From Lachnospiraceae bacterium (GTDB taxonomy: Bacteria; Bacillota; Clostridia; Lachnospirales; Lachnospiraceae): a DNA stretch of 64,000 bases. Both the position numbers and the translations under genes were made by a program. The DNA is taken from NCBI GenBank assembly GCA_017552985.1, contig JAFZNO010000076.1, positions 1 to 64,000 on the forward strand, given 5' to 3'. Below, piece by piece: positions 3,385 through 24,869 of the stretch; position 1 is the first letter of the stretch; every line of letters begins with the position of its first letter. The notes beneath the pieces are model-generated. The model made no database searches and was not told the origin of the DNA. It saw only the letters and a program-made list of their open reading frames with translations.

Positions 3385-4263
3385 ATGAAGAAAAGGATAT
3401 TGCTGACAGTGTGTTTCATTATGCTCCTTTGCATGGCAGGGTGCGGATCGCCAAGCGCGGACATACCTGACGGAGAAGAATTTCAAACGGTTAGGGCAAT
3501 CGTCACGAAAGTATATGAGAAGTCGATGGAGATACAGGTTGAAAAAGGTACGCTCATGTCGATGCCGGCGGAATGGCTTGAGGGCAAGGCTGAGCCGAAG
3601 GAAGGGCTGATTCTTGAAATCACTGCGACCAATGAGATCCTGGAAGTGTATCCATCGCTTTTTTCCAAGATCATAAGCGTAGAGGTCGTTGGTTTCGAGG
3701 AGCCAGTAAGTGAGAGCGGGGCAATCTCAGCGCGTGGCGATAACGAGGAGCCGGAAGCGGATGACGGGATGATCTCGGCGATTGGCGACAACGCGCAGCA
3801 GGATCAAAAAGCATGGGAAAAGGTGGTGATCGCGCCGCCGGAAGGTGCGTATTGCAACATTTCCTTTAGCCTTCCGGAGGACTGGGACTATAGCTGGGCA
3901 CAGACGGAAGACGTGCCAGTAAGCTGCATTAGCATTGGCATCTACCCAAAGGCAGAGGGGGATGCGAAAGGCTGCATTGCCATCAAATATGCGGAAGGTT
4001 TTGGCGTTTGCGGCACGGGCCTGGAATCCGTGGAGACGACCTTTAACGGGCACGTGGCATATAAGGGAACCTATGATGATCACCCGTATTGGGATTTCAT
4101 CTCCCTGTCAGGTGAATACAGAGGCTGTTCCATTTGGAATTATGCGGGCGAAACCTGGTATGACAAGTATCAGGAGGAGTTGGAAGAGATTTTTGCCACG
4201 GTGAAGTTTGAACTTTTGATACGTGACGGAGTACCGCTGAAGGATTCTTCGTTTGGGGACTGA
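3385..4263 (+). CDS. Lipoprotein of unknown function behind the sigma/anti-sigma pair
   Basis: A 292-aa exported lipoprotein. The signal peptide (MKKRILLTVCFIMLLCMAG) ends in a clear lipobox LCMAGC. I used the ATG at 3385, since AAGGAGGT at 3368-3375 lies before it; an upstream in-frame GTG at 3364 is blocked by that site. Residues ~25-100 resemble the small beta-rich domain of DUF3221-like lipoproteins (RAIVTKVYEKSMEIQVEKG). A separate C-terminal domain (~150-285) holds YCNISFSLPEDWDY. It follows the anti-sigma gene by 44 bp, so it may be part of the same regulon. Function is unknown. Confidence 0.7.
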   Translation: MKKRILLTVCFIMLLCMAGCGSPSADIPDGEEFQTVRAIVTKVYEKSMEIQVEKGTLMSMPAEWLEGKAEPKEGLILEITATNEILEVYPSLFSKIISVEVVGFEEPVSESGAISARGDNEEPEADDGMISAIGDNAQQDQKAWEKVVIAPPEGAYCNISFSLPEDWDYSWAQTEDVPVSCISIGIYPKAEGDAKGCIAIKYAEGFGVCGTGLESVETTFNGHVAYKGTYDDHPYWDFISLSGEYRGCSIWNYAGETWYDKYQEELEEIFATVKFELLIRDGVPLKDSSFGD

Positions 4264-4290
4264 GTTGAAATACATAAGTTGACAGTTTGG

Positions 4291-4325
4291 CACCTTGCGG
4301 TACAATCGTATCGCAAGGTGTTTTT
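4291..4325 (+). terminator. Intrinsic terminator
   Basis: ACCTTGCG and CGCAAGGT form a strong stem around a 12-nt loop, followed by TTTTTC. It closes the first sigma operon. A promoter-like TTGACA (4279-4284), 16 bp, TACAAT (4301-4306) overlaps the hairpin and could start transcription toward the second sigma gene. Confidence 0.8.
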
Positions 4326-4468
4326 CTCGTTTTGGTTTTTGTGATGGATTAAGGCGAGAAAATTCTTTTTGATGGAATCAGAAATGAGCGGGACGTTTTA
4401 CGTGCGTGCTTCGTCTAATGGTTGAAGACGTAATGTCAAAGATGCGCGCACAAAACGAGGTAACGAAG

Positions 4469-4993
4469 ATGAACAGAGATTTGGAACGATTGGTCCGAAG
4501 GGCGAAGGAGCGTGATCCGGACGCCTTTACGGAACTGATGGAATCACAAAAATATGTGTTGTATAAAACGGCAAGAGCCATTCTTGATAACGACGAAGAC
4601 GCTGCGGATGCCATTCAGGACACGATACTGACTTGTTGGGAGAAGCTGGATCTATTAAAAGAGAATCAGTTCTTCCGCGCGTGGATCACAAAGATTCTGA
4701 TCAATAAGTGCACCGATCTTCTCAGAATGAGGAAAAGGGTGGTTTATGTGGAAGAGTATCCAGAGATTCCGGCGAAGGAAGAAGTTTCAGACGCGGAATG
4801 GAAGGAGCTGTTGGCCGTTTTGGATGAGGAACATCGCTTGGTTGTGACGCTTTATTACGCGCAGGGATTCCGAACGAAGGAAATCGCCAGAATCCTTGGG
4901 ATCACGGATTCAGCGGTAAGATCGAGACTTGCCAGGGCAAGGGAACGGGTGAAGAAGTATTGTCAGGAGGCTGAAGCACATGAAAGATTATGA
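4469..4993 (+). CDS. Sigma-70 family (ECF) sigma factor, second module
   Basis: A 174-aa ECF sigma factor. Region 2 covers about residues 10-85 (ARAILDNDEDAADAIQDTILTCWEKL is the classical core, quoted here in part as DAADAIQDTIL). Region 4 lies at ~115-165 with YYAQGFRTKEIARILGI and SAVRSRLARARERVKK. The start ATG at 4469 has CGAGGT 7 bp before it; earlier in-frame starts from 4406 have no ribosome site. It overlaps the next gene by 14 bp, the same overlap as in the first module. The target promoters are not identifiable here. Confidence 0.88.
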   Translation: MNRDLERLVRRAKERDPDAFTELMESQKYVLYKTARAILDNDEDAADAIQDTILTCWEKLDLLKENQFFRAWITKILINKCTDLLRMRKRVVYVEEYPEIPAKEEVSDAEWKELLAVLDEEHRLVVTLYYAQGFRTKEIARILGITDSAVRSRLARARERVKKYCQEAEAHERL

Positions 4994-6047
4994 AAGGAAA
5001 ATGGAATTGGCCTTTTTGGAAGAGGAGCCATTGCCGGAGATTGTTGAAAAAGGGATGCAGGATGCGTATGACCTTATTTATTCCCAGTTTGGAACGGGAA
5101 GACGTGACCGGAAAGAGGAAGAGAAGAAAACAAGCAGACCTTCCGGAGCGAGCCTTCTGAAGGTCGCGGGATTCCTGGCAGTTTGCTTTGTTGCTTTGGG
5201 AACGACGGCTTTTGCCGTGCAGGCTCTCCTTGGCAGGTATGAGCGCATGCGGACCATGGATGAGGAAGAAAAAACGCAAATATACGAGGAACTCCAGAAG
5301 TCGGGACATCTTCTTTATTTATCCAACCGAAAGTGGACGGAAGCGGAACAAAAACGTTATGAGGAATTAGAACAGGCGTATAAAAACAATGAGGTACTTC
5401 CAGAGAGAGGTTTAAGGAGGCTTACGGACGGGGAGGAGTATTTCGGGGTCGGCGTTTGTCTTTTGGCGACGGAACAGGGAGAGGAAAACCTTTTGTATCT
5501 TCCCGAGCGAGACATGACGGATGAAGAGATTTTGGAGATTATCGAGTATTGCGAAAAGGTTCATTACGTGCTTCGGGAACAGAATCAAAAGCGGCAATTT
5601 GGGCAAGAAGTGTGGGAAGAACGGTTGTCCAAAATGACGGATGAAGAGGTGGATCATTATTATCTGGCATGCTTTGGCGCAACAAGATCAGAGCTCTTTG
5701 GAGGTTTTTGCAGGGACGGTCAGTGTTCGAGAACGGGTGCAAAGGTGCTGAGCGAGACGGAGGAAAAAAGATATCAGGAGATGAACGCCGCATATCGGGA
5801 GAATAACCGCATCCCCGAAAAGGAAATCACCCTGATCGAAAAGCCGGAAGATTATGACGGAAAGAGCGTGGCGTATTGCAGGTTGGATTCCGTTTATTAC
5901 GTTCCGCTTGGAGAGCTTACGGAAGAAGATTTTCTGGAGATCATTGATTTTGAGGCGCGGGCAAATTATAGCTGTCAGCGCATTCTGGAAGACGTTAATT
6001 ACGGGAAGCGCAGTGAATTTCCTGTGGAAGAAACTGGCAAAGATTGA
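4980..6047 (+). CDS. Membrane anti-sigma-like protein with duplicated outer domain
   Basis: A 355-aa protein with ~55 cytoplasmic residues, one transmembrane helix at ~59-80 (KVAGFLAVCFVALGTTAFAV) and a large extracytoplasmic part. The latter holds two related domains. The first begins with EAEQKRYEELEQAYKNN (~120) and ends with DEEILEIIEY. The second begins with ETEEKRYQEMNAAYREN (~258) and ends with EEDFLEIIDF. The duplicated domain may be the sensor. The 14-bp overlap with the sigma gene supports coupled synthesis and an anti-sigma role, but this is inference; no enzyme motif is visible. Confidence 0.65.
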   Translation: MKDYERKMELAFLEEEPLPEIVEKGMQDAYDLIYSQFGTGRRDRKEEEKKTSRPSGASLLKVAGFLAVCFVALGTTAFAVQALLGRYERMRTMDEEEKTQIYEELQKSGHLLYLSNRKWTEAEQKRYEELEQAYKNNEVLPERGLRRLTDGEEYFGVGVCLLATEQGEENLLYLPERDMTDEEILEIIEYCEKVHYVLREQNQKRQFGQEVWEERLSKMTDEEVDHYYLACFGATRSELFGGFCRDGQCSRTGAKVLSETEEKRYQEMNAAYRENNRIPEKEITLIEKPEDYDGKSVAYCRLDSVYYVPLGELTEEDFLEIIDFEARANYSCQRILEDVNYGKRSEFPVEETGKD

Positions 6048-19746: not shown

Positions 19747-20208
19747 ATGAAGACAATCAGAGTTGTGGCAGCAGTCATAAAATCCGTCGATCCTGACGGA
19801 AGGCCCGTGATCTTTGCAACCCAGCGGGGATATGGGGAGTTTAAGGACGGATGGGAATTCCCGGGCGGGAAGATCGAACCGGGCGAGACGCCCGGGGAGG
19901 CGCTGGTCAGGGAGATCAGGGAAGAACTGGGAACGGAGATCACCGTGGGTGAGAAGATCATGACGGTAGAACATGATTATCCGGAATTTCATTTGTCCAT
20001 GGACTGCTTTTGGTGTGAGGTGCAGAAGGGAAACCTGGAACTGCGTGAGCATGAGGCGGCGCGGTGGCTGACGGCGGAGACGCTGGAGGACGTAGACTGG
20101 CTTCCCGCGGACGTGGAATTGATAAGGCAGCTGCGCGATGAACTGGTGGCTGGCGGACGGAAAGAGGAAAAAACGCCATTGGAAAGGCAAGTGGAGGGCG
20201 AAAGATGA
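19747..20208 (+). CDS. NUDIX pyrophosphohydrolase, MutT/8-oxo-dGTPase type
   Basis: A 153-aa NUDIX hydrolase. The full Nudix box is present (GGKIEPGETPGEALVREIRE, then ELG, ~37-59), preceded by WEFPGGK. Close relatives of this shape hydrolyse oxidised or deoxy NTPs, so nucleotide-pool cleaning is likely. The gene ends in ATGA shared with the next gene, which suggests coupled expression with a large membrane protein. Confidence 0.88.
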   Translation: MKTIRVVAAVIKSVDPDGRPVIFATQRGYGEFKDGWEFPGGKIEPGETPGEALVREIREELGTEITVGEKIMTVEHDYPEFHLSMDCFWCEVQKGNLELREHEAARWLTAETLEDVDWLPADVELIRQLRDELVAGGRKEEKTPLERQVEGER

Positions 20209-22748: not shown

Positions 22749-24038
22749 TTACGGACGGCCGGACGAATGCTCTTTTAAAAATTGATGGTAGGCATTTACC
22801 AGGGTTTGGTATCCCAGGGCCTTTAGGTCTTCATAGCGCGCGTTGTATTTGGCTTTTGTGTGCTTTCCCGTGAGCAAGGTGCGGATGCACTCCTGTGCGT
22901 AAAGGTCGATGACATGGAGGCTGTCCGTGACGGTGAGCGTCGGGAAATACCAATAGCTCCAGGAGAGATCATTCTCCACGGGGCTTTCCAAAAGCTTGCG
23001 GTGAAAGGTGCGGATAAAAGCCTTTGCCGGCTTTTCACCCAAAAGGTCGTTTCGTTTTTGCCAGCGCTGCAGGGCCCTCACCTTGCGGCGCATTTTTTTC
23101 TTGATCTTTTGGACGGAGACGGGGGATACGTCCACCTGACCGTCCCGTACGTAAAAGCCAAGGAAGAGAAAACCTTCTTCCGGCGTGCGGAATTCTTCCT
23201 TCGCCGGATTGACGGCAAGACCCTTTTCCGAAAGAAAACTCCGGATGGCATCGGCATGGCGCTGGACTTCTTCCATGGAATCACCGAAGACGATGACGTC
23301 ATCGCTGTAACGGGCGTAGGGAATGTCCTGGTCATAAAAGAACTGATCCATGTCGCGGAGGTACAGGTTCGCGTAAAAGCATGCCAGCGGCGTGCCCGCC
23401 ATGATGCCCTTTTGTTCCCGGATCAGATTGCCTTCAGGTGACTGGCCGCCCCTCACGCAGGGCTCCGTTAAAAGAGACTTTAGGAAGAAAAACAGCGTCG
23501 GATCGTCCTTTGTCACGGCTTCCAGTTCCGGAAGGAGTCTATCGATGGGGATGGAGTTAAAGTAATTGCTGACGTCGACTTTATAAGTGTATTTCCGTCG
23601 TAAGTCTGGAATCTTATGGAGCCGCCGGATGGCGTCCTTGGCACTCCTGTTTGGGCGAAACGAAAAAAGGTTGTCGCAAAACAGTCCGTCATACTTTCGA
23701 AGAAGCAGATAGGTCAAAAGCTTTAGGACCAAGTTCTCCGCTTCCGGATAGGTATAGACCACGCGCTTTTTCTGGGAGCTTTGCTTGCTGATGACGGATT
23801 TCCGGGGCAGGGGGAACTGTACGCCGGAGGCCGTTTCCCTGGAAACAGGAAAATGTTCGGCGGAAGCGGTCTGCCGGGAAGTGATTTGCCGGATCTCCTC
23901 GCAGACGGGAAGGTACCCCTGCACGTCAATAAACTCCCGCAGGCTCCGGGCAGCAGCCCCTTGGCAGGCGAGAGACGTCTTATATGCATAAAATTTTTCC
24001 CAGACTTCCTGCTGGGAGAGGCTATCCAATAAAGACAT
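22749..24038 (-). CDS. Reverse transcriptase (RVT_1), not part of a group II intron
   Basis: A 429-aa RNA-directed DNA polymerase. The fingers/palm segment FSFRPNRSAKDAI (~126-137) is group II-like. Catalytic Asp residues are seen in KVDVSNYFNSI (Asp155) and YARYSDDVIVF (Asp246, Asp247); the usual YADD is YSDD. KGIMAGTPLACFYANLYL (~210-227) is the RT template-grip region. FLFLGFYV and the basic helix KIKKKMRRKVRALQRW form the thumb. A C-terminal region (~350-429) has no endonuclease. The canonical retron NAxxH and VTG motifs are not seen, nor a group II domain V downstream. ATG at 24038 has GAGGG 7 bp upstream. It sits 64 nt after the inverted-repeat RNA element and probably shares a transcript with it. 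Confidence 0.88.
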   Translation of the reverse strand: MSLLDSLSQQEVWEKFYAYKTSLACQGAAARSLREFIDVQGYLPVCEEIRQITSRQTASAEHFPVSRETASGVQFPLPRKSVISKQSSQKKRVVYTYPEAENLVLKLLTYLLLRKYDGLFCDNLFSFRPNRSAKDAIRRLHKIPDLRRKYTYKVDVSNYFNSIPIDRLLPELEAVTKDDPTLFFFLKSLLTEPCVRGGQSPEGNLIREQKGIMAGTPLACFYANLYLRDMDQFFYDQDIPYARYSDDVIVFGDSMEEVQRHADAIRSFLSEKGLAVNPAKEEFRTPEEGFLFLGFYVRDGQVDVSPVSVQKIKKKMRRKVRALQRWQKRNDLLGEKPAKAFIRTFHRKLLESPVENDLSWSYWYFPTLTVTDSLHVIDLYAQECIRTLLTGKHTKAKYNARYEDLKALGYQTLVNAYHQFLKEHSSGRP

Positions 24039-24102
24039 TTCGGGACCCTCGGACGGCGTTTGCCAAATCACTTGCACGCGTGGATTAGATTGGTTACATA
24101 TA

Positions 24103-24243
24103 AAAAACAGGAAGAGAAAAGGGTTAAAATTCAAGGAAATTCCTTGAATTCTACGGGATCGTACGTGAAACGGCTGCCTGCGAAACCATAAATTGTTTCA
24201 CGCCGGACCCGCCACAGGCGCTAAGCGTTCTCTTCCTGTTTTT
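24103..24243 (-). ncRNA. Candidate structured RNA upstream of the reverse transcriptase
   Basis: Read on the minus strand, AAAAACAGGAAGAGAA (24243-24228) opens and TTCTCTTCCTGTTTTT (24118-24103) closes a 141-nt segment: a perfect 16-bp inverted repeat. Inside are CGTGAAAC/GTTTCACG (plus-strand 24164-24171 and 24195-24202, 23-nt loop) and AATTCAAGGAA/TTCCTTGAATT (24128-24138 and 24140-24150). A short CGCC/GGCG pairing is also possible. The 3' end runs into T6. The position just before an RT gene and terminal inverted repeats recall retron or DRT-type RNAs. A long terminator for the upstream gene is the main alternative. Confidence 0.55.
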
Positions 24244-24275: not shown

Positions 24276-24797
24276 TCACTGGTTCAAGGCTTTCTTGGTG
24301 CGCTCGATGACGTAAGCCTTCGTGTTCCACCAGCCTGGATGGTTGTAGTAGAACCTAAGATAGGGTACGTGCTCCTTGTGGCAGTTGTAGCGGACGCTAT
24401 CGGCAGAACTGGTATCGGACATCAGTTCCACCACCAAAGCCCTTGCGTCGCCGTTCCAAAAAGTGATCTTGGTCGCGCGGCCCTTGCGGATGGAATCCGA
24501 CGTCAGGCGGTACGCGGGAAAATTCTTGGAATATACGTAAAGGAAGTACTGATCATAGGTGCCGGGATAATTAAACTGATTCTCCTCATCGGGCATCGTG
24601 GGGCCCCAGGAGAATCCAGACTCCGCACCGGAAGAAGAGGGTGCGGGTGCAGCGGATGCAGGCCGTGCGTTAGACGCGGCAGAATTGGGATTTGCTGCGG
24701 CATTTACGGCATTGGTAGCTTCTTTTGCCACGGTCTCAGCGGCATTTTTAATCTTGTCAGCGACGTTGGAACCAAACAGTTTGTCTAGAAAGCCCAT
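24276..24797 (-). CDS. Small protein of unknown function, first gene of the RT unit
   Basis: A 173-aa protein. The N terminus (MGFLDKLFGSNVADKIKNA) is amphipathic, followed by an A/S/P-rich linker (~28-62). The C-terminal domain (~65-173) contains ALVVELMSDTSSADSVRYN, VPYLRFYYNHPGWWNTKAYV and ends KKALNQ. The beta-alpha-beta pattern around VVEL and VPYLRFY vaguely recalls restriction-endonuclease-like folds, but I cannot point to a complete catalytic set, so no function is assigned. Start: ATG at 24797 behind AGGGGGA. A strong promoter lies upstream, and the stop is 33 bp before the structured RNA element. Confidence 0.65.
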   Translation of the reverse strand: MGFLDKLFGSNVADKIKNAAETVAKEATNAVNAAANPNSAASNARPASAAPAPSSSGAESGFSWGPTMPDEENQFNYPGTYDQYFLYVYSKNFPAYRLTSDSIRKGRATKITFWNGDARALVVELMSDTSSADSVRYNCHKEHVPYLRFYYNHPGWWNTKAYVIERTKKALNQ

Positions 24798-24840: not shown

Positions 24841-24869
24841 ATTATAATCAAAGAAATGATGCGTGACAA
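24841..24869 (-). promoter_or_regulatory. Promoter of the small protein / RNA / RT unit
   Basis: On the minus strand TTGTCA (24869-24864) and a perfect TATAAT (24846-24841) are 17 bp apart, 43 bp before the start at 24797. No equally good promoter is seen between this gene and the RT. Confidence 0.75.

What the first reader, a model, noticed from the sequence alone, without database searches (positions are those of the whole stretch)
22749..24243. Reverse transcriptase with an adjacent RNA element closed by a perfect 16-bp inverted repeat
Seen directly: an RT with all three catalytic Asp residues (YSDD box) lies 64 nt after a 141-nt segment whose ends pair perfectly over 16 bp and which contains two clear internal hairpins. 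Known: retrons and several defence RTs (DRT classes) pair the RT with a structured RNA directly upstream that serves as template or primer. Inference: this may be an undescribed RT/RNA pair. It is not a group II intron (no domain V after the RT), and it lacks the canonical retron NAxxH/VTG motifs. The 16-bp arms could correspond to a1/a2, with branch and template regions between.
Basis: partly seen in the sequence, partly recalled or inferred. Interest (0 to 1): 0.78.

Follow-up and report, generated by a model that had tools for sequence, protein, structure and literature searches.

The report
UG26 reverse transcriptase with RT-5 RNA
A gut bacterium carries a catalogued but unstudied reverse transcriptase together with its own small folded RNA and a helper protein, and the RNA looks built to make the enzyme write one short DNA word over and over, as telomerase does.

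Summary
In detail: perfect 16-bp arms, 141 nt, 64 nt before the start codon of an intact RT. "Undescribed" does not: the RT is PADLOC group UG26 (544 bits), the RNA is Rfam RF03026 "RT-5" (86 bits), the upstream gene is PADLOC's RTasCOG2852 (198 bits). (2) The arms are a conserved 14-bp closing stem (13 of 14 pairs change on both sides) and there is a 7-bp pseudoknot; neither is in the Rfam covariance model. (3) The loop between last hairpin and 3' arm carries an A-B-A' repeat like the template of the telomerase-like DRT10; in the window UUUU-AACCC-UUUU, predicting (GGGTTAAAA)n DNA. (4) RNA, with or without the partner gene, can sit away from the RT. It is not a retron or intron. Most likely: RNA-templated, probably protein-primed tandem-repeat DNA synthesis for phage defence. 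The unit is shown by comparison; template, product and defence are inferred.

The parts
24841..24869 (-). sigma-70-type promoter TTGTCA-17-TATAAT (11 of 12) in front of the partner gene
   Evidence: 1 found in 2.4 kb, 1.9 expected by chance in shuffles; homologous position: 39 of 75 partner genes have at least 10 of 12 within 120 nt, against 3 of 75 shuffled and 1 of 75 in the partner-end/RNA stretch
24276..24797 (-). partner gene, 173 aa, PADLOC RTasCOG2852; N-terminal MGFLDKLFG, C-terminal YLRFYYNHPGWWNT
   Evidence: PADLOC 198 bits; found in 74 of 80 relatives' loci; no Pfam match over cut-off, no NCBIfam match, no PDB match
24103..24243 (-). ncRNA, RT-5 (RF03026) with closing stem
   Evidence: Rfam 86.3 bits at 24223-24116; own model R1 134 bits at 24251-24097
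24228..24243 (-). 5' strand of the closing stem
   Evidence: covariation helix 1
24103..24118 (-). 3' strand of the closing stem, followed by a U run
   Evidence: covariation; T4 or longer in the last 18 nt of 75 of 90 model hits
24213..24219 (-). pseudoknot 5' strand GCCUGUG
   Evidence: pairs with 24176-24182; 7 pairs, all cells paired in 60 sequences (helix 2)
24176..24182 (-). pseudoknot 3' strand CGCAGGC, in a hairpin loop
   Evidence: helix 2
24128..24150 (-). hairpin just 5' of the template loop (candidate template boundary)
   Evidence: helix 6, 92.5% of cells paired
24117..24129 (-). candidate template, A-B-A' = UUUU-AACCC-UUUU (A 24126-24129, B 24121-24125, A' 24117-24120; the first two U lie in the hairpin stem, the last two in the closing stem); predicted cDNA unit GGGTTAAAA
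   Evidence: sequence; A/A' repeat statistics; by analogy with DRT10 (PMC12632851)
22749..24038 (-). UG26 reverse transcriptase, 429 aa
   Evidence: PADLOC RT_UG26 544 bits, next best UG17 101; Pfam RVT_1 90 bits
23298..23309 (-). catalytic YSDD, residues 244-247
22785..22811 (-). C-terminal motif YQTLVNAYH (family: RSLVHEYY), candidate site of protein priming
   Evidence: alignment; tally

Best explanation
A three-part, chromosomal, UG26-type defence reverse-transcriptase operon: partner gene, ncRNA, RT. The RT binds the RT-5 RNA. The RNA's closing stem, stem-loops and pseudoknot hold an unpaired loop, flanked on its 5' side by a stable hairpin, in the active site. The enzyme copies the loop up to the hairpin (A-B), the new DNA end slips back and re-pairs with A', and the cycle repeats, giving tandem-repeat DNA, in this genome predicted to be (GGGTTAAAA)n. 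Priming is probably from a hydroxyl residue of the RT's C-terminal tail. The partner is taken to sense or execute the response. Shown by comparison: the RT/RNA unit, its fold, its stand-alone nature, the partner's linkage in most lineages. Inferred: template position, repeat synthesis, priming, defence role.
For: RT family: UG26 544 bits, then UG17 (the group named DRT10 in PMC12632851) 101.4, UG27 101.1, UG4 91.9, Drt9 91.5. One-to-one co-occurrence of RNA and RT. Where RT and RNA are apart, the genome still has both. RNA fold and pseudoknot by covariation. RNA as its own unit: in 8 partner-less loci, 7 have TATAAT and 1 TATATT 6-12 nt before the 5' arm. Template loop: an A/A' repeat of at least 2 nt in 88 of 88 clade I loops and 21 of 21 others, at least 3 nt in 62 and 17; mean 3.36 against 1.93 in shuffled loops (0 of 300 as high) and 3.11 with halves swapped between RNAs (0 of 300) in clade I. 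The position, a loop after a stable stem-loop, is that of DRT10 and DRT9 and of DRT3a's ACACAC (PMC12632851 parts 1-3, PMC13174585 passages). C-terminal RSLVHEYY recalls the DRT9 priming peptide IMNPQSLNYDYE (PMC12483538 passage); at least one Tyr in 106 of 111 parsed tails.
Against: No expression, cDNA or defence data. The U's of A and A' are invariant in clade I, so they test nothing by themselves, and A' overlaps the closing stem while A overlaps the hairpin stem in the window. The base before UUU matches loop position N3 in 37 of 80 RNAs against 25.5 expected (0 of 1000 permutations), but on the RT tree only 1-2 informative independent pairs exist, p at least 0.5. In the other clades swapping halves gives no significant loss (25 of 300 as high), and those loops were cut out by eye. 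The C-terminal Ser is Asn or Cys in 15 of 111, so Ser cannot be the universal primer. The partner was not found in 9 genomes examined, 8 of them among the 15 UG26 genomes of the class sample. No defence island was seen around the window (one search tested 10 genes).
Confidence: 0.58

Rival explanations
1. DRT2-like: the RNA is copied over a long stretch and by rolling round, so that the concatemer encodes a peptide; the short A-B-A' loop is not the template unit.
For: DRT2 is also a Class 2 RT with an upstream ncRNA (PMC12632851 part 1); the closing stem could bring two ends together.
Against: The RNA is only about 141 nt and its interior is one continuous set of conserved stems and a pseudoknot, leaving little unpaired template; DRT2 copies a ~120-nt template (PMC12483538 passage). 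Profile score to Drt2 is low (51.9 bits PADLOC; 56.7 against a cut-off of 390 in NCBIfam).
Confidence: 0.1
2. DRT9-like homopolymer maker: the U's of the loop template poly-dA.
For: Loop ends are U-rich; Drt9 profile 91.5 bits, solved DRT9 81.7 bits (9ioa); the C-terminal tail looks alike.
Against: The loop always holds AA and non-U letters between the U's (72 clade I loops); the DRT9 template is a conserved U tract (PMC12483538 passage).
Confidence: 0.1
3. Retron-like: the RNA is copied once into a short branched DNA (arms = a1/a2) that holds the partner protein in check.
For: RNA upstream of RT, a partner protein in the operon, long terminal stem.
Against: RT falls in UG26, not in a retron family (retron St85 model 47.8 bits against a cut-off of 235); NAxxH in 2 and VTG in 16 of 116 RTs; no reverse-transcribed hairpin-plus-branch anatomy is evident.
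Confidence: 0.06
4. The RNA is a cis-acting leader that regulates the RT gene (riboswitch or attenuator).
For: It lies in the 5' region of the RT gene and ends in a U run.
Against: The RNA lies 7.3 kb from the RT in G229, 1.2 kb in G343, behind two other genes in G002, and on another contig with the partner in G532; partner-less RNAs have their own -10 box.
Confidence: 0.04
5. The system makes templated repeats but not for phage defence (housekeeping or selfish element).
For: It is a chromosomal single copy in changing surroundings; the viral, phage and plasmid searches gave no full-length relative; UG26 has no published defence test in the papers searched.
Against: Patchy occurrence within a genus (24 of the genus-rich 146 relatives) and kinship to UG17/UG28 fit defence; PADLOC lists UG26 and its partner as DRT on association alone.
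Confidence: 0.12

Closest known systems
DRT10 (UG17 RT + SLATT protein + ncRNA; PMC12632851, parts 1-3 of 8 and passages seen)
   Same: Tripartite operon; ncRNA of 137 nt against 141 nt; large central stem with smaller stem-loops; candidate template in a loop after a stable stem-loop with A-B-A' pattern (A of 2-4 nt); nearest other PADLOC profile (UG17, 101 bits).
   Different: RT is UG26 (544 bits); partner is RTasCOG2852, not SLATT; RNA lies between partner and RT rather than upstream of the accessory gene; here a 7-bp pseudoknot is shown (the DRT10 text uses the word once, for telomerase); no experiment yet.
Rfam RF03026 RT-5 RNA
   Same: 86.3 bits, gathering score 45.7; this is the same RNA.
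   Different: The Rfam covariance model has 104 positions and leaves its first 12 and last 13 unpaired, so the closing stem and the pseudoknot are additions.
PADLOC RT_UG26 and RTasCOG2852
   Same: 544 and 198 bits; the RT/partner link is thus already catalogued (PADLOC's groups come, as recalled, from Mestre et al. 2022, not held).
   Different: The catalogue entry is protein only; the RNA, and a diverged partner in the second clade (hhalign probability 99.1%; PADLOC 22.7 bits or less in 10 tested), are not part of it as far as seen here.
DRT9 (UG28)
   Same: ncRNA-templated, protein-primed Class 2 RT; C-terminal tyrosines; loop position.
   Different: DRT9 template is poly-U and RNA 188 nt (PMC12489045 passages); UG26 loop is mixed.
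DRT3a
   Same: Short template motif in a loop at the analogous place (PMC13174585 passages).
   Different: Works with a second RT, Drt3b; the UG26 operon has one RT.

Membership tests
UG26 RT (PADLOC PDLC03764) | full-length match to the UG26 profile, well above other groups | tested here: met
   544 bits, profile 1-397 of 398; next 123 bits (general RT), then UG17 101
RT-5 RNA (RF03026) | score over gathering threshold, full model | tested here: met
   86.3 against 45.7 bits, model 1-104
DRT10 | RT of group UG17 | tested here: not met
   UG26 544 bits against UG17 101 bits
DRT10 | SLATT partner gene | tested here: not met
   partner is RTasCOG2852; no Pfam SLATT match in 69 partners
DRT10 | A-B-A' template loop after a stable stem-loop | tested here: met
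   A/A' of 2 nt or more in 109 of 109 loops examined; chance and ancestry only partly excluded
DRT10 | tandem-repeat, protein-linked cDNA and phage defence | not testable with these tools
   needs experiment
Class 2 DRT in general | RT nearest to DRT2/9/10/3a and an in-cis ncRNA | tested here: met
   profile ranking; RNA; class assignment itself rests on profile scores, no tree with named classes was built
DRT9 | conserved poly-U template | tested here: not met
   loops UUUAA-N3-5-UUC in 72 of 72 clade I RNAs
Retron | NAxxH and VTG motifs, retron-family RT | tested here: not met
   NAxxH 2 of 116, VTG 16 of 116; retron St85 model under cut-off
Retron | 2'-5' branched msDNA | not testable with these tools
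   -
Group II intron | intron RNA (domain V) by the RT; maturase model | tested here: not met
   no intron model in 4 kb at E up to 5; TIGR04416 113 against a cut-off of 300 bits

The most novel reading that the evidence does not exclude
UG26/RT-5 is a second, independent bacterial lineage of telomerase-like repeat makers: an RNA of about 140 nt with a pseudoknot and a hairpin boundary directs an RT to add a defined 8-11 nt word (here GGGTTAAAA, close to telomeric repeats by coincidence or not) without end, with a COG2852-type partner in place of SLATT, and the RNA acts in trans.
Probability: 0.45. Interest if true: 0.72.

Novelty: new member of a known kind. Interest (0 to 1): 0.5.

Why it matters
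Class 2 defence RTs write unusual DNA from small RNA templates and include the nearest bacterial kin of telomerase (PMC12632851). UG26 and RT-5 have lain in separate catalogues without a function; joining them, with a closing stem, a pseudoknot, a named template loop and a named product for each of about a hundred systems, makes the idea that all Class 2 groups make templated repeats testable with one sequencing run. The pseudoknot beside a telomerase-like template would bear on where telomerase RNA came from.

Tried and rejected
Retron, group II intron, DRT2-like, DRT9-like and cis-leader readings: see rivals. Partner as PD-(D/E)XK nuclease: suggested only by the PADLOC name and by my reading of the sequence (Glu124 invariant in 69 clade I partners; no matching Glu seen in the clade II sequences); not tested. 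Membrane helix in the partner: 68 of 69 have no 19-residue window near 2 on the Kyte-Doolittle scale; the first 11 residues are mildly amphipathic (moment 0.37 against 0.27, sd 0.13, shuffled), not conclusive. A named UG17 RNA for a direct structural comparison was sought in 391 class genomes and not found (controls silent too). A-to-A' covariation by tree: too few independent pairs. A first count of Y.DD took the first match in the protein and was replaced. Searches for print on UG26, RT-5 or COG2852 with RTs; the only RT paper naming UG26 was PMC10504277 (passages), a virus survey. Weinberg 2017 and Mestre 2022 are not held and are cited from recall.

Full report
What is there. On the minus strand, in order: a promoter-like site (24869-24841), a 173-aa gene (24797-24276), an RNA of 141 nt closed by a perfect 16-bp stem (24243-24103), 64 nt, and a 429-aa RT (24038-22749). 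The fold of the RNA strand is far better than shuffles (z -7.2).

Names. The RT is PADLOC RT_UG26 at 544 bits; the next named groups are UG17 101.4, UG27 101.1, UG4 91.9 and Drt9 91.5. The RNA is Rfam RT-5 at 86.3 bits. The upstream protein is PADLOC RTasCOG2852 at 198 bits; it has no Pfam match over cut-off and no NCBIfam match. So all three parts are catalogued. That UG26 is an association-only group, and that RT-5 came from a 2017 motif survey, are recalled; those papers are not held. In the full-text library UG26 occurs with reverse transcriptases only in a virus survey, and RT-5 not at all.

RT and RNA belong together. In a class sample, UG26 RTs of at least 460 bits occur in 15 of 391 genomes (4 more genomes have weaker hits of 139-284 bits), and RT-5 in 15 of 351 (14 over the gathering score, G440 under it at 36 bits): the same 15. 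Among 146 relatives, 24 have a clear UG26 RT (E 5.9e-57 or better); the strict genome scan finds the RNA in 18, all among the 24, and the locus scan adds G005, G040, G068 and G073. G024 and G027 stay without (70% and 83% complete, G027's contig starts at the RT). G078 has only RT fragments and no RNA. The viral scan gave one 23% relative; phage and plasmid searches gave no match covering 80% of the RT.

RNA fold. On 60 RNAs (A2), 42 pairs: 95.5% of cells paired, 30 pairs with change on both sides and 298 such cells against 82 in shuffles; sliding partners drops pairing to 40-49%. The closing stem, 14 pairs in the alignment, has change on both sides in 13 and 94.4% of cells paired. The pseudoknot between GCCUGYG and CGCAGGC has 7 pairs, all 420 cells paired, 6 cells changed on both sides and 21 on one. 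A stricter pattern finds it in 86 of 90 clade I RNAs; of the other four, three pair over 7 bp by eye with G-U and one is masked with N. In the second clade that pattern finds 14 of 21; several misses pair over 5-6 bp by eye. The Rfam model pairs neither region. RT-5 model or R1 hits were found next to UG26 RTs down to about 40% RT identity.

RNA as a separate unit. In G229 the single RNA lies 7.3 kb from the RT, in G343 1.2 kb; in G002 partner and RNA are followed by two unrelated genes and then the RT; in G532 (locus L068) the RT stands alone on one contig and partner plus RNA on another. G532 is a metagenome bin, so contamination cannot be excluded. In 8 loci without a partner, a -10 box (7 TATAAT, 1 TATATT) ends 6-12 nt before the 5' arm; singly these promoter scores are weak (2 to 31 of 200 shuffles as good). 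With a partner, the promoter precedes the partner (39 of 75 at 10 of 12 or more, shuffled 3 of 75).

Partner. Found in 74 of 80 loci; L073, L083, L094 and L119 are cut by contig ends, L064 has none, L068 is the split case. Searched alone it is found in 7 of 146 relatives and 6 of 391 class genomes, by position always beside UG26 or its RNA. In the second clade a diverged homologue sits in the same place (16 of 19 loci L006-L024 with the clade II profile, 11 of whose own seeds come from them; L015 has one further upstream, in L156); the two profiles match with 99.1% probability. It was not found in 9 genomes, so the partner is common, not universal.

Template loop. Clade I reads UUUAA-N-UUC with 4 middle letters in 67, 5 in 4 and 3 in 1 of 72. 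All 109 loops examined hold an A/A' direct repeat of 2 nt or more, 79 of 109 of 3 or more. In the window the repeat is UUUU, period 9, so copying AACCC between them predicts GGGTTAAAA repeats. Against chance: 3.36 nt mean in clade I, shuffled loops 1.93, swapped halves 3.11 (0 of 300 each); other clades 3.19, shuffled 1.86 (0 of 300), swapped 3.03 (25 of 300). The letter before UUU matches the third middle letter in 37 of 80, 25.5 expected, but the tree allows only 1-2 informative independent contrasts, so ancestry is not excluded. In DRT10, A of 2-4 nt suffices, the template follows a stable stem-loop that sets its 5' boundary, and mutating it stops repeats (PMC12632851 parts 2-3); DRT3a's ACACAC sits at the analogous place (PMC13174585 passages). 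This is why the loop is proposed as template.

Priming. UG26 tails end in RSLVHEYY-like motifs; of 111 parsed, 106 have Tyr at one or both last positions and 96 Ser or Thr at the first; Tyr402 is invariant in 49 aligned RTs. DRT9 primes from tyrosines in a C-terminal peptide IMNPQSLNYDYE and DRT10 from a C-terminal Ser or Tyr. Protein priming is thus likely by analogy, untested here.

Verdict. A real, well conserved RT/RNA/partner system; parts known, link and working model new to the searches made. Works most like DRT10; is not a DRT10 member (RT group and partner differ). Interest 0.5.

Noticed in passing
window 19747-20208 (+): NUDIX-like protein matching PADLOC candidate PDC-S07 at 162.5 bits; probably an ordinary MutT-type enzyme.
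   Followed up: no
L066 5771-5995, L107 5784-5990, L018 2710-2905, L020 1253-1457: RT-5 RNAs with long insertions in the apical part of the pseudoknot stem-loop; the rest of the fold is kept.
   Followed up: no
L156 2885-5038: An oxidoreductase-like gene and a second gene with an HELIH-like motif lie between RNA and RT in G002.
   Followed up: partly
L151 (G440), RT ORF 3910-5145 (-): A diverged UG26 whose RNA scores only 36 bits with RT-5 and is missed by R1; perhaps a third RNA type.
   Followed up: partly
L011 1480-2748 (-): UG26 RT reading frame broken by a TAG (two ORFs), with partner and RNA present: decay or assembly error.
   Followed up: no
L149 and L150: UG26 RT and RNA without a partner inside a run of genes that look like radical-SAM/cobalamin enzymes in two genomes of one genus code (gene types from my reading of the sequence).
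   Followed up: no
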